NCBI GenBank assembly: GCA_021788175.1
Contig: JAJYKX010000007.1
Location: 1 to 32,078, forward strand
Direction: 5' to 3'
From: Chloroflexota bacterium
GTDB lineage: Bacteria > Chloroflexota > Limnocylindria > Limnocylindrales > CSP1-4
DNA: 32,078 nt
Part shown: positions 1,039 to 7,811 of the stretch, piece after piece
Position numbering within the stretch: position 1 is the first letter of the stretch
Layout: each line of letters opens with the position of its first letter
The notes under the pieces: model-generated
Database searches by the model: none
What the model saw: only the letters and a program-made list of their open reading frames with translations
What the model was told of the DNA's origin: nothing
Program-made: the position numbers and the translations under genes

Positions 1039-1392
1039 TCAGCGCAGCTGGGCCAGCAGCTCCCCCGTCCCGATGAGCACCACGTGGTGGCGCGCCCGGC
1101 TCGACCCCACGTAGAGGAGCTGGCGCAGGCGGGGGTCGTCGGCCCACAGCTCGACCAGGACGACGCACGGCCAGTCGAGGCCCTTGGCGCGGTGGATGGT
1201 GTCGCACAGGATGGTGTCGGAGGGCTGCGGTGCGACCGCCTCGGCGGCCAGCCCGAGCGGGTGCCCGGCATCGTCGACGTGCCCGTTCCAGAGCACCTCG
1301 TCGCCGAGGGTGCGCCGCTGCCAGTCAGGAATCGACCTGGACCAGAAGATATGCTTCAGTGTGGTTCGATCGGCTCCACGGGCGCGGCGCAC
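1039..1392 (-). pseudogene. C-terminal remnant of a UvrD/PcrA-type superfamily 1 DNA helicase
   Basis: Encodes 'DTIHRAKGLDWPCVVLVELWADDPRLRQLLYVGSSRARHHVVLIG', resembling SF1 helicase motifs V/VI; no Walker A or other N-terminal motif upstream on this strand. Homology is likely to end near 1320-1340. Confidence 0.65.
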
Positions 1393-1455
1393 TGTCCGTC
1401 ACGGGCCTGCACTTTGGCGCCGCTGGACGACCCCCCGGCGGAGCGGGGGTTGTCC

Positions 1456-1596
1456 ATGAACCAGGTGCTCCTGACAGGCCGTGTCACCCGGGAACACGGC
1501 CTTCGCAGGACTCCGAGAGGCGAGTCGGTCGCGCAGTTCACGATCGCGACGCACGACCACCGGTCCGGGTCGGAGAAGGCGGAGTACCAGGGGGTT
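1456..1596 (+). pseudogene. ssb: 5' fragment of a single-stranded DNA-binding protein (SSB) gene
   Basis: MNQVLLTGRVTREHGLRRTPRGESVAQFTIATHDHRSGSEKAEYQG is the N-terminal OB-fold start of SSB; the following residues (VRHLAPPAPSDVVWCS) are not SSB-like. Confidence 0.65.
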
Positions 1597-1635
1597 CGCC
1601 ACCTTGCCCCGCCAGCGCCCTCTGATGTGGTATGG

Positions 1636-1692
1636 TGTTCCACGAATTGGCCTTGTTCCGCAAGGAGTGGAACAGCGCACATGGCTGGAACA
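1636..1692 (+). promoter_or_regulatory. Candidate operator: TGTTCCAC/GTGGAACA inverted repeat plus additional half-sites
   Basis: TGTTCCAC (1636-1643) and GTGGAACA (1667-1674) are perfect reverse complements; extra half-sites TTGTTCC (1653-1659) and TGGAACA (1686-1692), immediately at the start of the AbiEi-like gene. Confidence 0.45.
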
Positions 1693-2835
1693 GTGGAGGA
1701 CCTTCTCGCGCCATCGAGCGAACGCGAGCTCCTCGGTTCGCTCGAGAAGCTACTAATCGACAGACTGCCAGATGGCTGGTCGATCGCTATCGAGCGCGAG
1801 CCCCGAGGCCAGACCCCGAGCGAATGGCGGCCCGATGCGTTCATTGCCGTCCAGGCCCCCAACAGGGCGCGAGCGCGTTTGGCCGTCGAAGCACGCGCAA
1901 GCCTCTACCCGCGCGACACGTACGCGTTGTCGAGCGAGCTCGGCTCGCTGTGGCTGCGTCCGCCGGTCCCGAAGGGCCGAGTGGCAACCTTCCCAGGGGT
2001 CGATGGCGTGCTTGTACTGAGCCGCTTCCTAACGGCGAGGACTCGCACGATGCTGGACAAACTCGGGTTCTCGTACGCGGATGCCACCGGCAACCTGCGC
2101 ATCGCGACGCGCGTGCCGCCGATCTTCATCGAGCTCTGCGGAGCGGAATCGAACCCGTGGGCTGAGGATCGGCCGCTGCGATCGCTGCGAGGACCGGCGT
2201 CCGCTCGAGTCGTCCGCGCTCTGCTGGACTTCAGGCCGCCATATCCGCTCCGTCTGCTGGCCGAGACGGCCGAATTGCCCCTCGGAAGTGCGTCGCGGGT
2301 CGTCGCCTTCCTCGTGAGCGAGGCGCTCGTCGAGCGAAGCGGACGCGGACCGATCGAGAGCGTCGACTGGAAGGCGCTCCTGCGGCGATGGACGCAGGAC
2401 TACTCACTCCTGAAAACCAACAGATCGCGGTTCTTCCTCGAACCTCGGGGCCCGCGGGCCTTGGAGGCTCGCCTTCGAGAGTTGGATGCTCCGTACGCCG
2501 CGACGGGGAGCCTTGCTGCAGCACGCCGAGCCGAGGCCGCCCCGGCGGCGCTCGCCGCCGTGTACGTGCCGAACATTGACAAGGCGGCGAGTCGCCTCGG
2601 GTTGCGCGACGCACCGAGCGGCGGCAACGCGGTGCTACTCGAGCCCCTCGCTGACGTTGTATTCGAGCGGACCTGGGATCAGGACGGCATCACGTACGCG
2701 GCCCTGCCACAGGTCGCCGCGGATCTGTTGACCAGCCCCGGCCGCGGCCCGGCGGAGGCCGAGGCGCTTGTCCAGTGGATGGAGGACAACCAGGATGCCT
2801 GGCGGGTCTCCCTGCGCATGCGAGGCAAGACCTAA
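1681..2835 (+). CDS. AbiEi-like (type IV antitoxin-like) protein with possible REase-like N-terminal region and winged-helix domain
   Basis: C-terminal part of ORF 1084..2835; ATG at 1681 follows a putative operator. 'FSYADATGNLRI', 'RPLRSLRGPASARVVRALLDFRPPYPLRLLAETAELPLGSASRVVAFL', 'YAATGSLAAARRAEAAPAALAAVYV' resemble AbiEi-family regulators. Assigned by pattern recognition only. Confidence 0.55.
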   Translation: MAGTVEDLLAPSSERELLGSLEKLLIDRLPDGWSIAIEREPRGQTPSEWRPDAFIAVQAPNRARARLAVEARASLYPRDTYALSSELGSLWLRPPVPKGRVATFPGVDGVLVLSRFLTARTRTMLDKLGFSYADATGNLRIATRVPPIFIELCGAESNPWAEDRPLRSLRGPASARVVRALLDFRPPYPLRLLAETAELPLGSASRVVAFLVSEALVERSGRGPIESVDWKALLRRWTQDYSLLKTNRSRFFLEPRGPRALEARLRELDAPYAATGSLAAARRAEAAPAALAAVYVPNIDKAASRLGLRDAPSGGNAVLLEPLADVVFERTWDQDGITYAALPQVAADLLTSPGRGPAEAEALVQWMEDNQDAWRVSLRMRGKT

Positions 2836-3224
2836 TGGCTTGGCCGGTCGTCTACTACCGAGCCTCGGACCGGTCCGAGCCGGTGAACGATGAGATCGAC
2901 CGCCTGCCACCCAGGGCACAAGTCGCCATCGACAACCAGATCGAGCGGCTCGGCCTCTTCGGTCCGAACCTCGGCTTCCCGTACACCAGCCAGATCGAAG
3001 GTGAGCTCCGCGAACTGCGGTGTCACCTCGGCGATGACCTCTACCGGATCCTCTATCGGCGCTCGCGGAACCTGTTCGTGCTCCTGCACTTCATCGAGAA
3101 GCGGACGGACAAGGTACCCGCCGAGGATATTCGAATCGCCCAAGCTCGCTGGGACGAGTTTGTCCGGCGGATGAACGAGCGTCCGCGTCGACCGCCACGT
3201 GCGGCAGGCCACGATGCTCCTTGA
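2835..3224 (+). CDS. HigB/RelE-like toxin (phage-derived Gp49-like family)
   Basis: 'IERLGLFGPNLGFPYTSQIEGELRELRCHLGDDLYRILYRRSRNLFVLLHFIEKRTDKVPAEDIRIAQARWDEF' matches the typical HigB/Gp49 pattern. ATG overlaps the upstream stop (TAATG). Confidence 0.8.
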   Translation: MAWPVVYYRASDRSEPVNDEIDRLPPRAQVAIDNQIERLGLFGPNLGFPYTSQIEGELRELRCHLGDDLYRILYRRSRNLFVLLHFIEKRTDKVPAEDIRIAQARWDEFVRRMNERPRRPPRAAGHDAP

Positions 3225-3248
3225 CGAACTTCTCAATAGTGGTAATCT
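3221..3248 (+). promoter_or_regulatory. Candidate internal promoter for the XRE antitoxin gene
   Basis: TTGACG (3221-3226), 16-nt spacer, TAATCT (3243-3248), 18 nt before ATG 3267; the -35 overlaps the toxin stop codon. Confidence 0.45.
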
Positions 3249-3266
3249 CACGCCGACACCTACCGC

Positions 3267-3629
3267 ATGAGAACAGCCACCGTGACAGCTAAGCAGGAGT
3301 GGGTAAGCCCCGTCGGCAGCACCAGTCGCACAGCGAGGCGACGTCGCGCGGGACGGAGTGCGGAGTATCGGGCCGAGCAAGAGCGACTGGCCCCGTACGA
3401 GGCATTGGCGAGGATGGTCATCGCTCGTCGGATCCGATATAGCCTGACCCAGGAGCAGCTGGCCGATCGGATGAGCACGAGTGTCTCGGCGATCAGCCGG
3501 CTCGAGAGTGGTCAGCACCGCCCGAACGTTGAGACCCTCGAGAAGTTGGGCCTGGCATTCGGGGAACGGTTCGTCTTCGGATTCGAGGATCAGGCCGGCG
3601 AGCGCGAGCTCGCGGGTGTCGGGCGCTGA
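3267..3629 (+). CDS. XRE-family HTH antitoxin (HigA-like)
   Basis: 'ARMVIARRIRYSLTQEQLADRMSTSVSAISRLESGQHRPNVETLEKLGLAFGERFVFGF' is a classic Cro/CI HTH; directly downstream of the HigB-like toxin. Confidence 0.8.
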   Translation: MRTATVTAKQEWVSPVGSTSRTARRRRAGRSAEYRAEQERLAPYEALARMVIARRIRYSLTQEQLADRMSTSVSAISRLESGQHRPNVETLEKLGLAFGERFVFGFEDQAGERELAGVGR

Positions 3630-3667
3630 TTCGTCCAGGTTTGCTGTCAGGCCGGGCTGCGCCAGAC

Positions 3668-5989
3668 TCAGCCGCGCTGCTCGCTGGCAGCCAGGAACGC
3701 GGCTGCGGCCGCCCTCACCGTGTATGCGATGTGGGCGGCCGCTACCCGGGATGCGCGCGCGTCTAGCTCGGTTTCGAATGCCTCACCAGAGCGGCGACTC
3801 TGCGCGAGGCCGAGCCACACCGCCCTCGGGACCAGCTCCCCGGGCTCCTCAAGCAATTCAGAAATGCGCGCCTGCCGCAGCTCGGGGGCGACGTCAACCG
3901 TGGCAGCCCCAAGGGCGTTCCCGGCAGCCGCTCGGACGAACGGGTCCGGGTCGTGGGACAGGCCAATCAGGACTGCCGCAAGGGTCGAAGAGTCCAGGCT
4001 CCCGCGAATAACGCCAAGGGACCGGATGGCCTGTAGGCGCGCCTCTTGACTCGGTGAGTGCGCGAGCCGCAGGAGATGGCTCAGGGCCACGCTCGTGCTG
4101 ACGTCACCAAACACGGCTTCCAGCTGAAGATTCACTCCGAGGAGATCGGCCTGCGTGCCAAAGATTGGCATACCGATCTGAGCCGCGGGCAGGCCGGCGG
4201 CGAGCCGTCGCCGGTGCCTAGACGGGACCTCTCCTGGCTCGGCGATGAAAGGCACAACGGTCGCTATTCGTTCGTCGAGTGACACCTTGGGGTCCATCGC
4301 GAAATCAAGGGCTTCATCGAACAGGCCGCGACGCCGGCTAGTTAGCGCGAGCCGACCCAGGAGCCCGCCAACCCTGATGAGTCCCATCGTGTACCGACCC
4401 GCGGACGCCTCACGCCGCATCGACTGAGCGAGATCAATGACCGCATTCTCGACAGCTTGCCGATCGTCGGAACGCAGCGAGCCACGACGCAGCAGCAGGG
4501 AGACGAGATACAGAGACCGCGTCTCGCGAAACGCGGCCAGGGCGACCCTTGAGATTGCGATGGGATGGAGCGACATCAACTCATGGGCGGCGGCCATCGC
4601 TGGGAACACGTGATCATCGCGCGCGCCGAGGTTGTCTTGTACATACCCAAGCCAAAGGCGGACTTCGGTCCGGCCGAGGCGTTCCCAATCGAGGCTGTGC
4701 AGCACCCGCCCGATGGATTGATGAACCATTGGGTCTGGCGGCGCCGAGGCGAGTTCGCGGATGGCGCGGGACATCCGGCGCTGGTGTAGTGGCCCTGCAG
4801 GCGGTGCTAGTGCGGCGAGCGCCTTCATGATGGGATCGACAACCCAGCCACTGCCAGGCACGAACCGAAGCATGTCTGGCAGGCTTCCGAGGATTCTGTC
4901 AAGAGCGCGCTCCACGGCAGCCGCGTCGAGGGCTGTGGCGGCGTGTTCGAGTATCGAGAGGTCCGCCCTTAGCTCGATCGGCCACCATGGCATTGAACTC
5001 ACACGGTCTCCGGCTCCCCTCAGCGGTTCGAGAGGGCCGGCAGCTCGAAACACGCTCAGGGCACGGTCGAGGCCTTCGACGTCGCGGCCACGCCGGAGCT
5101 GCTCAAATCCAAACGCGGCGCCCGGCGAGCTTCTTCCAGCCTCGCTCAACAATCGGTACCGCCCGAGGCTCTTCCTCGCTCGTGCCACGCCCTGCCAGTC
5201 CGCGAGACACTCCGCCCGGAACAGCGATCGGGACAGCCCTCGATCTGTCTGATCCTCCCTCGCGAACGTCACCGACCGGGTGAAAGGCTGCTCGAAGAAG
5301 GCCTTGAAGTGGCCGTCGAGGTAGTCCTCGAGTGCATCAACCGCAAGGAGGTCGATCCACGCGATCGCCTTCGAGTCAGCGCGGCGCGGCATATCTGGCG
5401 GAACCGCATGCCCGACGATCCAGCCGAACTGCGCCGCGTTGTGCCTGGCGATCGTCTGGATGGCCAGATGGGGTTCCGAGCGGTCGTCAGTCGCATCGCC
5501 CGCTGCGGTCGAACGAGCCTCTGCCTCGGCGAACAGACCGCACTCGGCTGCCCGGAATGCCCAATGCACGTCGAGCAGCGCCTTCTCGGCCGGCTCGTTG
5601 ACGTCCCGTGCGCGCTCGTCGAGAAGCGGGAGCGCAAGGTCAGGGCGCCCACTATCGCTCAGCGCGGCTCCGCTGAGGATGGCGGCGATGGAACGGATCC
5701 CGGACTCCACCTCCGGAGACGCGGCTATGGACGACAGGCCGTCCAGCGCCTCTCGATGCCCGCCCACGAGAAGCGAGATAGCAGCGACGAGCCTCGACTC
5801 GCCGTCACGACGAGCCTCGGCCGTTGCGCTGGCGAATGCGGGCAGGCCGGCGTCAGGCGCACGACGCTCGTAGTCATCCAAACGACCGTCGAGCAAGAGC
5901 GCAATCGCTGACTTCCGCTGCTCGTCGGGACCTGCGGAAGCGATCACAGACGGCGGGTCGACAAGAACCTGAACCCAGGACGTGGCCAT
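3668..5989 (-). CDS. Large helical-repeat (TPR/HEAT-like) protein of unknown function, 773 aa
   Basis: Almost entirely alpha-helical-looking; HEAT-like C-terminus 'LAAVLIGLSHDPDPFVRAAAGNALGAATVDVAPELRQARISELLEEPGELVPRAVWLGLAQS'; TPR-like N-terminal half. No enzymatic motif recognised. Confidence 0.75.
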   Translation of the reverse strand: MATSWVQVLVDPPSVIASAGPDEQRKSAIALLLDGRLDDYERRAPDAGLPAFASATAEARRDGESRLVAAISLLVGGHREALDGLSSIAASPEVESGIRSIAAILSGAALSDSGRPDLALPLLDERARDVNEPAEKALLDVHWAFRAAECGLFAEAEARSTAAGDATDDRSEPHLAIQTIARHNAAQFGWIVGHAVPPDMPRRADSKAIAWIDLLAVDALEDYLDGHFKAFFEQPFTRSVTFAREDQTDRGLSRSLFRAECLADWQGVARARKSLGRYRLLSEAGRSSPGAAFGFEQLRRGRDVEGLDRALSVFRAAGPLEPLRGAGDRVSSMPWWPIELRADLSILEHAATALDAAAVERALDRILGSLPDMLRFVPGSGWVVDPIMKALAALAPPAGPLHQRRMSRAIRELASAPPDPMVHQSIGRVLHSLDWERLGRTEVRLWLGYVQDNLGARDDHVFPAMAAAHELMSLHPIAISRVALAAFRETRSLYLVSLLLRRGSLRSDDRQAVENAVIDLAQSMRREASAGRYTMGLIRVGGLLGRLALTSRRRGLFDEALDFAMDPKVSLDERIATVVPFIAEPGEVPSRHRRRLAAGLPAAQIGMPIFGTQADLLGVNLQLEAVFGDVSTSVALSHLLRLAHSPSQEARLQAIRSLGVIRGSLDSSTLAAVLIGLSHDPDPFVRAAAGNALGAATVDVAPELRQARISELLEEPGELVPRAVWLGLAQSRRSGEAFETELDARASRVAAAHIAYTVRAAAAAFLAASEQRG

Positions 5990-5991
5990 CG

Positions 5992-6600
5992 TCAGGCAGC
6001 CGATCCCAGCGGCCCATGGCCTACGCCGACGCGCGTCATGAGGAACGGAAAGAGGGTGGTCATCAGACTCGCTTGAAAGTCCAGCTCAGTCTCGCTTCGG
6101 CGATAGATCAGCTCGCGGCCAAAGTCTCGGCGGACCTCGTCCACGAATTCTCGGATCGTCGGCGCCCCTGCAGGAACGGGTGTCGCCCCGCGAGACGGCG
6201 ATCGAACGAAGACCCACAGCTCACGGGCTTGGCCAAGCTGCCGCAGCTCGAATACGCGCCGAATCTCGAGACGCGTGACTTCGGGAACGCTTCGTCCGAG
6301 GATGGCAATCACGCCCTCGGACTCGTCGACCTGCCGAAGGCTGCGATCCGGGACGTGACCAACCGGCTCGTCGCGCGACGGATCCAGCCGATAGTCCCAC
6401 TGGTTCAGGTTGTACTTGGTTGCGAGGTCAAACCGCAGCACGTGATCGAGGCGGCGGATGACGTCGCTCGAGATGTCACGGAGGCGGTTCATCTCGCCGC
6501 CACAGCTCACCAAGAGGAGGATCTCCTCACGCAGCACACCGCCGCCTGCGGGCGGCGGCGTGGCAACGAACGCGCCCGCGCTGGCGAACGCGAAGGTCAT
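5992..6600 (-). CDS. Small Rossmannoid protein, possibly DUF4062/TIR-like; upstream partner of the helical-repeat protein
   Basis: 'EEILLLVSCGGEMNRLRDISSDVIRRLDHVLR...NLNQWDYRLDP...DRSLRQVDESEGVIAILGRSVPEVTRLEIRRVFELRQLGQARELWVFV': strand-helix-strand layout with Dx(S/E)D..I.IlG and T..EI..a elements as in DUF4062/TIR-like folds. True start uncertain. Confidence 0.6.
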   Translation of the reverse strand: MTFAFASAGAFVATPPPAGGGVLREEILLLVSCGGEMNRLRDISSDVIRRLDHVLRFDLATKYNLNQWDYRLDPSRDEPVGHVPDRSLRQVDESEGVIAILGRSVPEVTRLEIRRVFELRQLGQARELWVFVRSPSRGATPVPAGAPTIREFVDEVRRDFGRELIYRRSETELDFQASLMTTLFPFLMTRVGVGHGPLGSAA

Positions 6601-6686: not shown

Positions 6687-7631
6687 TCAAAGCCGGTCGC
6701 CCGGGCTGAGCCGCTTGCACGCCTCACGTGCCCGCTCGTCGGCCGCCGAGGCGCCGTACCGGGCAAGCATCTGGCGGCTCTTCCAGCCGGCGAGGCGCAT
6801 GAGGTCGCCCTCGGTTCCACCCGCAGCGAGCCATTGATGGGCGTACGTGTGGCGGAACTGATGCGGATGGATGTCGGGCAGGCCGGCTTCGCGCCCGCGG
6901 CGCTTGATGGCCTGCTCGACGCCGGTCTCGGTCAGCCGGCCCCGCTTCCCGAGCCACAGCCAGGGCTCGGCAGCATCGGGCCGCTTCGATCGCACCCGGA
7001 GATACCGGTCGATTGCCTGGCCGGTCTTGTGGCCGAACGGGCACGCTCGCGGCCGGCGGCCCTTGCCGAGAACGACGGCGGTCTCCTGGTCGAGGTCGAC
7101 GTCCTCCATCTCCAGTCCGGCGAGCTCGCCGCGGCGCATCCCCGTGTCGAGGAAGAGCCGGATCATGGCGTTGTCGCGACGGTCCTCGAAACCGGTCCCG
7201 GCGCAGGCATCCAGCAGCTTTCGCAGGTCGGCCTCGCGCAGGACGGGCGGGGGAGTCTCGGGGACGAGTGGCGGACGCATCGTCGCCATCGGGCTCGCCG
7301 CGATCTCGCCTTCGGCGGCCAACCACTTGAAGAACTGCTGGAGCGAGCGGAAGCGCTGCGAGAGTGTGGCCGGGCGCATCCCGGCGTCGGAGCGCTCGAC
7401 GAGGAAGGCCTCGACGTCCTCGCGCCGGACGCCGGCGACCCGGCGCGGTCGGTGGCGGCGCGGCTCGGCCAGGAACGCGTCGAACTGCTCGACCGCCTTG
7501 GCATAGGTCACGATCGTCGAGGGCGCTTTGTTTTCGGCCCGGAGGTGGCGGATGAACGAGGCGAGGTTGGCGGTGACGTCGGGTTCGGCTATAGAATCAG
7601 CCGGAGCCCGACCGCGGGCGCTAGGACTCAT
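6687..7631 (-). CDS. Tyrosine recombinase/integrase (phage integrase family)
   Basis: N-terminal SAM-like domain '[29 protein letters not shown]'; catalytic pattern '[12 protein letters not shown]', '[18 protein letters not shown]', '[14 protein letters not shown]'. Confidence 0.93.
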
Positions 7632-7736: not shown

Positions 7737-7811
7737 GGCGGAGTAGCTCAGTGGTAGAGCAGGGGACTCATAAGCCCTTGGTCGCAGGTCCGAATCCTGC
7801 CTCCGCTACCA
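7737..7811 (+). tRNA. tRNA with CAU anticodon (elongator Met or Ile2), CCA encoded; noncanonical at positions 39 and 55
   Basis: GGCGGAG/CTCCGCT acceptor, GCTC/GAGC D-stem, loop CTCATAA, T-arm GCAGG-TCCGAAT-CCTGC, ACCA end. A31/G39 mismatch and C at T-loop position 55. Confidence 0.9.

What the first reader, a model, noticed from the sequence alone, without database searches (positions are those of the whole stretch)
3668..6600. Two-gene unit: small DUF4062/TIR-like Rossmannoid protein + 773-aa helical-repeat protein on a recombinase-bearing island
Seen: minus-strand genes with only 2 nt between the first gene's TGA (5994-5992) and the second gene's ATG (5989-5987), adjacent to a tyrosine recombinase and next to a toxin-antitoxin cassette. 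The small protein has a strand/helix start (ILLLVSCGGEMNRLRDISSDVIRRL), a DESEGVIAILG segment and a TRLEIRRVFELRQ helix, as expected for a DUF4062/TIR-like fold. The large partner looks like a TPR/HEAT scaffold without its own catalytic motif. Established: nucleotide-processing or sensing Rossmannoids paired with helical-repeat sensors are common in bacterial conflict systems. Inference: this pair could be an undescribed abortive-infection-like module, with the repeat protein as sensor and the small protein as effector.
Basis: partly seen in the sequence, partly recalled or inferred. Interest (0 to 1): 0.72.

Follow-up and report, generated by a model that had tools for sequence, protein, structure and literature searches.

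The report
Split TIR-like effector with HEAT-repeat partner
On a small mobile island of a soil-type Chloroflexota genome, a two-gene unit pairs a diverged member of a recently described family of NAD-destroying phage-defence enzymes with a large HEAT-repeat protein that probably senses the infection, so it is most likely a two-part variant of a defence system known so far only as a single protein.

Summary
In detail: coordinates, the 2-nt gap, the recombinase and the toxin-antitoxin cassette all check out. The small protein (5992-6600, minus) matches no Pfam, PADLOC, NCBIfam or PHROG model. A two-sequence profile of it nevertheless aligns over 143 columns with DUF4062 (score 53.7; at most 20.2 in 60 shuffles). 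Its Glu112 falls on a Glu present in 29/29 Chloroflexota DUF4062 domains; the predicted fold is a five-stranded beta/alpha Rossmannoid. A May 2026 preprint shows DUF4062 to be a TIR-like NADase in antiphage defence (Swarozyc). The 773-aa partner is all-helical with C-terminal HEAT repeats. The pair recurs, linked, in one other genome of the class beside type I restriction genes. The partner's C-terminal ~230 residues also occur fused to a TrlF/Ppl-like PHP-ATPase in a third genome. The island sits at tRNA-Met; a 95%-identical integrase at the same site in a sister species carries AbiEi, PIN and RES genes, and a 90%-identical one elsewhere carries TrlF and AbiE. Best reading: an abortive-infection module with separate sensor (HEAT) and NADase effector (DUF4062-like) genes. 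New variant of a known kind; activity and phage defence are untested, and only two full copies are known.

The parts
5992..6600 (-). Small gene: DUF4062-like (TIR-like) Rossmannoid, 202 aa from ATG 6600 or about 181 aa from GTG 6537; Glu112 at the position of the invariant DUF4062 glutamate
   Evidence: no match in Pfam/PADLOC/NCBIfam/PHROG
3668..5989 (-). Large gene: 773-aa all-helical protein with C-terminal HEAT repeats (residues about 638-698 matched by HEAT_2), putative sensor/scaffold
   Evidence: HEAT_2 2.5e-7; model almost entirely helices, mean pLDDT 51.6, residues about 440-700 mostly 65-79; weak matches to HEAT solenoids only
5990..5991 (-). 2-nt spacer between the small gene's stop and the large gene's ATG; the homologous pair overlaps by 4 nt
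6687..7631 (-). Tyrosine recombinase (integrase) of the island, 86 nt upstream of the pair, same strand; 95% identical copy at the same site in G001
7737..7811 (+). tRNA-Met(CAT), integration site; its 5' 40 nt (7737-7776) are repeated at the far end of the related island in G001
3267..3629 (+). Cro/C1-type HTH protein (HigA-like antitoxin), neighbouring cargo of the island, not part of the pair
2835..3224 (+). Gp49/HigB-like toxin, neighbouring cargo
   Evidence: Gp49 9e-19
1681..2835 (+). AbiEi-like protein (weak match), overlaps the Gp49 gene by one base; neighbouring cargo
   Evidence: AbiEi_2 0.0012, just under its cut-off

Best explanation
A two-gene anti-phage (abortive-infection type) module carried as cargo of an integrase island at tRNA-Met. 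The small protein is a diverged DUF4062, i.e. TIR-like, domain without any auxiliary domain and acts as the effector. When activated, most likely by being clustered, it cleaves NAD+ using Glu112, and the infected cell stops or dies. The large HEAT-repeat protein supplies what the auxiliary domain does in the one-protein form: it holds the effector inactive and/or recognises a phage component, then brings effector copies together. Shown: gene structure, remote homology to DUF4062 with the conserved Glu and Arg, Rossmannoid prediction, HEAT repeats, linked recurrence, island position, and domain sharing with a TrlF-type ATPase. Inferred: NADase activity, sensor role, phage trigger, physical complex.
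For: Small protein vs DUF4062: hhalign probability 95.4, score 53.7 over 143 columns; 60 column-shuffled controls at most 20.2, reversed 16.9, TIR_2 profile 17.8; HMMER with a local DUF4062 model finds both family members and a TIR model does not. Glu112 aligns with a Glu present in 29/29 DUF4062 domains and Arg41 with an Arg in 28/29. AlphaFold model: five alternating strands and helices. DUF4062 proteins are NADases that give abortive defence dependent on one Glu and on an auxiliary domain (PMC13174449). Linked pair conserved in G021 with a 4-nt overlap, next to HsdR/M/S. In the class (177 genomes) only these two genomes have the small gene and both have the large one (chance of such overlap 6e-5). 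The partner's C-terminal region (residues 516-728, 32% identity, E 4e-15) is fused to a TrlF/Ppl-like PHP-ATPase in G055. Island: GC3 0.73-0.79 for the cargo vs 0.96-0.98 for ftsH and the following genes; occupied/empty tRNA-Met site in the genus; near-identical integrases carry AbiEi, PIN and RES genes (G001) and TrlF with AbiEi/AbiEii (G044).
Against: Only two complete copies are known, so conservation statistics are thin. The small protein lacks the DUF4062 'YG' motif and the second Ser of 'SS', and is not detected by PF13271 itself. Its model is of moderate confidence (pLDDT 66) and Foldseek's best solved structures are flavodoxin-like reductases at TM about 0.4-0.5, not TIR domains. The N-terminal half of the large protein has no confident model. 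Not every DUF4062 is an active NADase: human NWD1, NWD2 and NPHP3 were inactive in PMC13174449. No known defence gene other than toxin-antitoxin genes lies beside the window's pair. No interaction between the two proteins was tested.
Confidence: 0.6

Rival explanations
1. The pair is a conflict module, but the DUF4062-like protein is catalytically dead or makes a signal: it is an adaptor that polymerises or binds a nucleotide, and the HEAT protein (or another gene) delivers the effect.
For: Loss of the YG and second Ser positions; in PMC13174449 several human DUF4062 proteins had no NADase activity.
Against: The one Glu that is invariant in DUF4062 is kept in both copies at 36% overall identity. 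The large protein has no enzymatic family match, and no separate effector gene is seen next to both pairs, so there is no alternative effector in sight.
Confidence: 0.2
2. Toxin-antitoxin behaviour: the small protein is a constitutive NAD+-consuming toxin and the large HEAT protein its inhibitor, kept for island stabilisation rather than for phage defence.
For: The island carries other toxin-antitoxin genes, as does the related island in G001; toxin gene first, tight spacing.
Against: A 773-aa partner is far larger than known antitoxins; the partner's domain is shared with a TrlF/Ppl-like ATPase of a phage-defence type; DUF4062 proteins act as infection-triggered enzymes (PMC13174449). This rival overlaps with the main reading, since many toxin-antitoxin pairs act in defence.
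Confidence: 0.15
3. The two genes have an unrelated housekeeping or regulatory role (for example a flavodoxin-like small protein with a scaffold) and sit on the island by chance.
For: Foldseek's best matches to the model are flavodoxin-type reductases.
Against: Those matches have TM about 0.4-0.5 and about 10% identity; sequence profiles point to DUF4062. The genes are absent from 175 of 177 genomes of the class, and both copies lie in low-GC3 DNA rich in defence or toxin-antitoxin genes.
Confidence: 0.05

Closest known systems
Swarozyc (Swz), DUF4062 NADase defence system (Osinski et al. 2026 preprint, PMC13174449)
   Same: TIR-like DUF4062 Rossmannoid with a conserved Glu; found in mobile/defence DNA; expected NAD+ depletion.
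   Different: Swz is one protein with a C-terminal helical stalk and an HTH/winged auxiliary domain that binds the phage portal. Here the domain stands alone and a separate 773-aa HEAT-repeat protein is encoded next to it; the DUF4062 sequence is diverged below Pfam detection.
Pfam PF13271 (DUF4062)
   Same: Collinear over the full domain by profile-profile alignment; Ser32, Arg41 and Glu112 at conserved positions.
   Different: No hit to the Pfam model itself; 'YG' after strand 3 and the second Ser of 'SS' absent.
TrlF / Ppl family PHP-ATPase
   Same: The partner's C-terminal HEAT region is fused to a TrlF-like N-terminal part in G055; an intact TrlF rides on the same integrase type in G044.
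   Different: No PHP or ATPase domain in the window's pair.
Classical TIR effectors (PF13676, Thoeris and others)
   Same: Fold class, catalytic Glu and expected NAD+ chemistry.
   Different: No direct profile similarity of the small protein to TIR_2 (score 17.8, background level); related only through DUF4062.

Membership tests
DUF4062 / TIR-like NADase | Sequence similarity to the DUF4062 family over the whole domain | tested here: met
   hhalign probability 95.4, 143 columns, score 53.7 vs at most 20.2 in shuffles; but PF13271 itself gives no hit
DUF4062 / TIR-like NADase | Five-stranded parallel beta/alpha (TIR-like) fold | tested here: inconclusive
   Five alternating strands and helices predicted, but model confidence is moderate and Foldseek ranks flavodoxin-like folds first
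DUF4062 / TIR-like NADase | Conserved catalytic Glu | tested here: met
   Glu112 aligns to a Glu in 29/29 DUF4062 domains and is conserved in G021
DUF4062 / TIR-like NADase | YG motif and 'SS' after strand 1, typical of PF13271 but not known to be required for activity | tested here: not met
   SC instead of SS, no YG; hence filed as DUF4062-like, not as a Pfam DUF4062 member
DUF4062 / TIR-like NADase | NAD+ hydrolysis dependent on the Glu | not testable with these tools
   needs biochemistry
Swarozyc defence system (as published) | DUF4062 and an HTH/winged auxiliary domain in one polypeptide | tested here: not met
   small protein ends with the domain; partner is a separate HEAT protein
Swarozyc defence system (as published) | Portal-triggered abortive infection | not testable with these tools
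   needs phage challenge
HEAT-repeat proteins | HEAT_2/HEAT model over cut-off, helical solenoid | tested here: met
   HEAT_2 31.3 bits (cut-off 27.7), HEAT 26.2 (cut-off 23.5); helical model; only the C-terminal part is assigned
Integrase-borne genomic island at a tRNA gene | Integrase next to a tRNA, foreign composition, occupied and empty sites, att repeat | tested here: met
   the att repeat was found for the related island in G001 but not in this contig, whose left end probably lies inside the island

The most novel reading that the evidence does not exclude
A family of split defence systems in which one exchangeable HEAT-repeat sensor module is paired with different effectors: a stand-alone DUF4062 NADase (this window, G021) or, by fusion, a TrlF-type PHP-ATPase (G055), in part spread by one tRNA-Met integrase lineage.
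Probability: 0.35. Interest if true: 0.7.

Novelty: new variant of a known kind. Interest (0 to 1): 0.52.

Why it matters
DUF4062 proteins were only just shown to be NADases of immunity, and also to sit in the human RNA vault (TEP1). A minimal bacterial DUF4062 that stands alone and relies on a separate HEAT-repeat partner would let effector and sensor be tested apart, and would show how far the family extends beyond what Pfam detects. The sharing of the HEAT region with a TrlF-type ATPase would suggest interchangeable sensors among unrelated effectors.

Tried and rejected
Weak search hits of the small protein in G179 and G349 (E about 4e-4 and 6e-4) were read and are chance matches inside or beside a membrane glycosyltransferase-like and a histidine kinase ORF; the short G030 hit (20 bits, 41% over 47 residues) was listed, not read further, and is taken as chance. 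NCBIfam/PDB hints to RNA-free RNase P (E 0.009-0.7) were dropped as non-significant. Large-protein HMM hits across the phylum are short, mostly generic HEAT matches (residues about 630-700), apart from G021 and G055. No relatives in plasmids, phages or viral contigs; the genome-collection scan found only the G021 record (PLZO01000043.1). The left att repeat of the window's own island was sought and not found in the contig, and the flanking dipeptidase gene is not found in the assembly. A comparison with two 'GWEDT'-type DUF4062 sequences looked attractive by eye but gave no profile signal and is not used. Recombinant or assembly origin of the G055 fusion (MAG 60% complete, 550 contigs) cannot be excluded.

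Full report
Observation. The window is one whole contig (C68) of a 2.8-Mb draft genome in 292 contigs; its relative G021 is recorded as a Chloroflexi metagenome-assembled genome. The recombinase at 6687-7631 and the Gp49/HTH cassette at 2835-3629 are confirmed by Pfam. The start of the small gene is uncertain: the first 22 residues are unstructured in the model and absent in the homologue, so GTG 6537 is a likely start.

The small protein. It matches no model in Pfam, PADLOC, NCBIfam or PHROG. One homologue, in G021 (same bacterial family, 36% identity), allowed a two-row profile. For comparison I collected 29 DUF4062 domains (PF13271) and 12 TIR_2 domains from the phylum. The profile aligns with DUF4062 over 143 columns with probability 95.4 and score 53.7. 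Sixty column-shuffled versions reach at most 20.2, the reversed profile 16.9, and the TIR_2 profile 17.8. Each of the two sequences alone also matches DUF4062 (36.7 and 42.7). DUF4062 and TIR_2 match each other (66.2), so the small protein is linked to TIR domains through DUF4062. The AlphaFold model shows strand-helix alternation five times; Foldseek places it among flavodoxin-like Rossmannoids without preferring TIR, so the fold evidence is compatible but not specific.

What DUF4062 does. A preprint of May 2026 (PMC13174449) shows that DUF4062 is a TIR-like NADase family; that a one-protein form from Klebsiella, Swarozyc, gives abortive defence that needs its Glu97 and an auxiliary domain; and that the phage portal activates it by assembly. 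The distance from the first strand to the invariant Glu in the domains collected here (76-80 residues in most) fits Glu97 of a protein whose domain starts near residue 15-20; that correspondence is my inference. The preprint mentions DUF4062 genes in operons with diverse enzymes but no HEAT partner in its main text; its supplement was not available.

The large protein. It is almost entirely helical, with HEAT repeats above cut-off near the C-terminus. No enzyme family is recognised. It is conserved end to end with its G021 homologue (30%). Its C-terminal part, residues 516-728, recurs at 32% identity (E 4e-15) at the end of an 859-aa protein in G055 whose first 555 residues are TrlF-like (NCBIfam 2.9e-81; PADLOC Ppl 1.3e-7). 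The TrlF part is cut short there, so this is either a true fusion or a recombinant; in either case the HEAT region is associated with a defence-type ATPase.

Linkage and distribution. In 177 genomes of the class, only G000 and G021 have the small gene, and both have the large one next to it in the same order; in G021 the genes overlap by 4 nt. The chance of that coincidence if the genes were independent is about 6e-5. In G021 the neighbours are HsdR, HsdM and HsdS and a stand-alone Cas1, and the region has low GC3.

The island. The cargo genes at 1681-6600 have GC3 0.73-0.79, ftsH and the next genes 0.96-0.98. In sister species G007, G004 and G006 a dipeptidase gene lies directly upstream of the same tRNA-Met, an empty site on that side (G006 has other genes between tRNA and ftsH). 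In G001 a 95%-identical integrase occupies the same place and a 40-nt copy of the tRNA's 5' half lies 4.8 kb away, so this lineage appears to integrate in the anticodon region of the tRNA and to restore the tRNA. Its cargo is AbiEi, an HTH protein, a PIN protein and a RES-domain protein. In G044 a 90%-identical integrase is followed by a full TrlF ATPase and AbiEi/AbiEii. This integrase lineage therefore carries conflict genes repeatedly. The left end of the window's own island probably lies beyond the contig.

Verdict. A two-gene, DUF4062-like effector plus HEAT-repeat partner module is well supported as a unit and as mobile conflict-island cargo. That it depletes NAD+ on sensing a phage is the best inference (about 0.6), not shown. 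It differs from Swarozyc in having the effector domain alone and a separate, unrelated partner. I rate it a new variant of a known kind; the small number of copies and the absence of any experiment keep the score moderate.

Noticed in passing
L006:13006-14655 (-), G021: A stand-alone Cas1 (549 aa, Cas_Cas1 6.9e-38) with a C-terminal Cys-rich extension lies next to the homologous pair, with no other cas genes noticed in 20 kb; an ORF at L006:7362-9275 (-) has a 'CDTDS' segment reminiscent of B-family DNA polymerases, but Pfam does not support it and no convincing terminal inverted repeats were found.
   Followed up: partly
L010:4136-6715 (-), G055: TrlF-like PHP-ATPase whose last ~400 residues are replaced by the HEAT region of the window's large protein.
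   Followed up: partly
window 7737-7776 and L048:10007-10046: Integrase lineage that uses tRNA-Met(CAT) upstream of ftsH and duplicates the 5' half of the tRNA; occupied, empty and otherwise-filled sites within one genus.
   Followed up: yes
L048:8674-9824, G001: Gene pair at the end of the G001 island: 208-aa unknown protein and RES-domain protein, likely an Xre-RES-type toxin-antitoxin pair (RES 1e-8); the 208-aa partner has no family match.
   Followed up: no
window 1681-3629: AbiEi-like gene overlapping a Gp49/HigB-like toxin by one base, followed by an HTH gene: an unusual three-gene toxin-antitoxin-like cluster.
   Followed up: no
window 1039-1600: Apparent remnants of a UvrD-type helicase C-terminus (1039-1392, -) and of a single-strand-binding protein N-terminus (about 1456-1600, +), judged by eye, suggesting repeated insertion and decay at the island.
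   Followed up: no
L077 (G012): A 934-aa open frame with a diverged DUF4062 domain in the same bacterial family.
   Followed up: no
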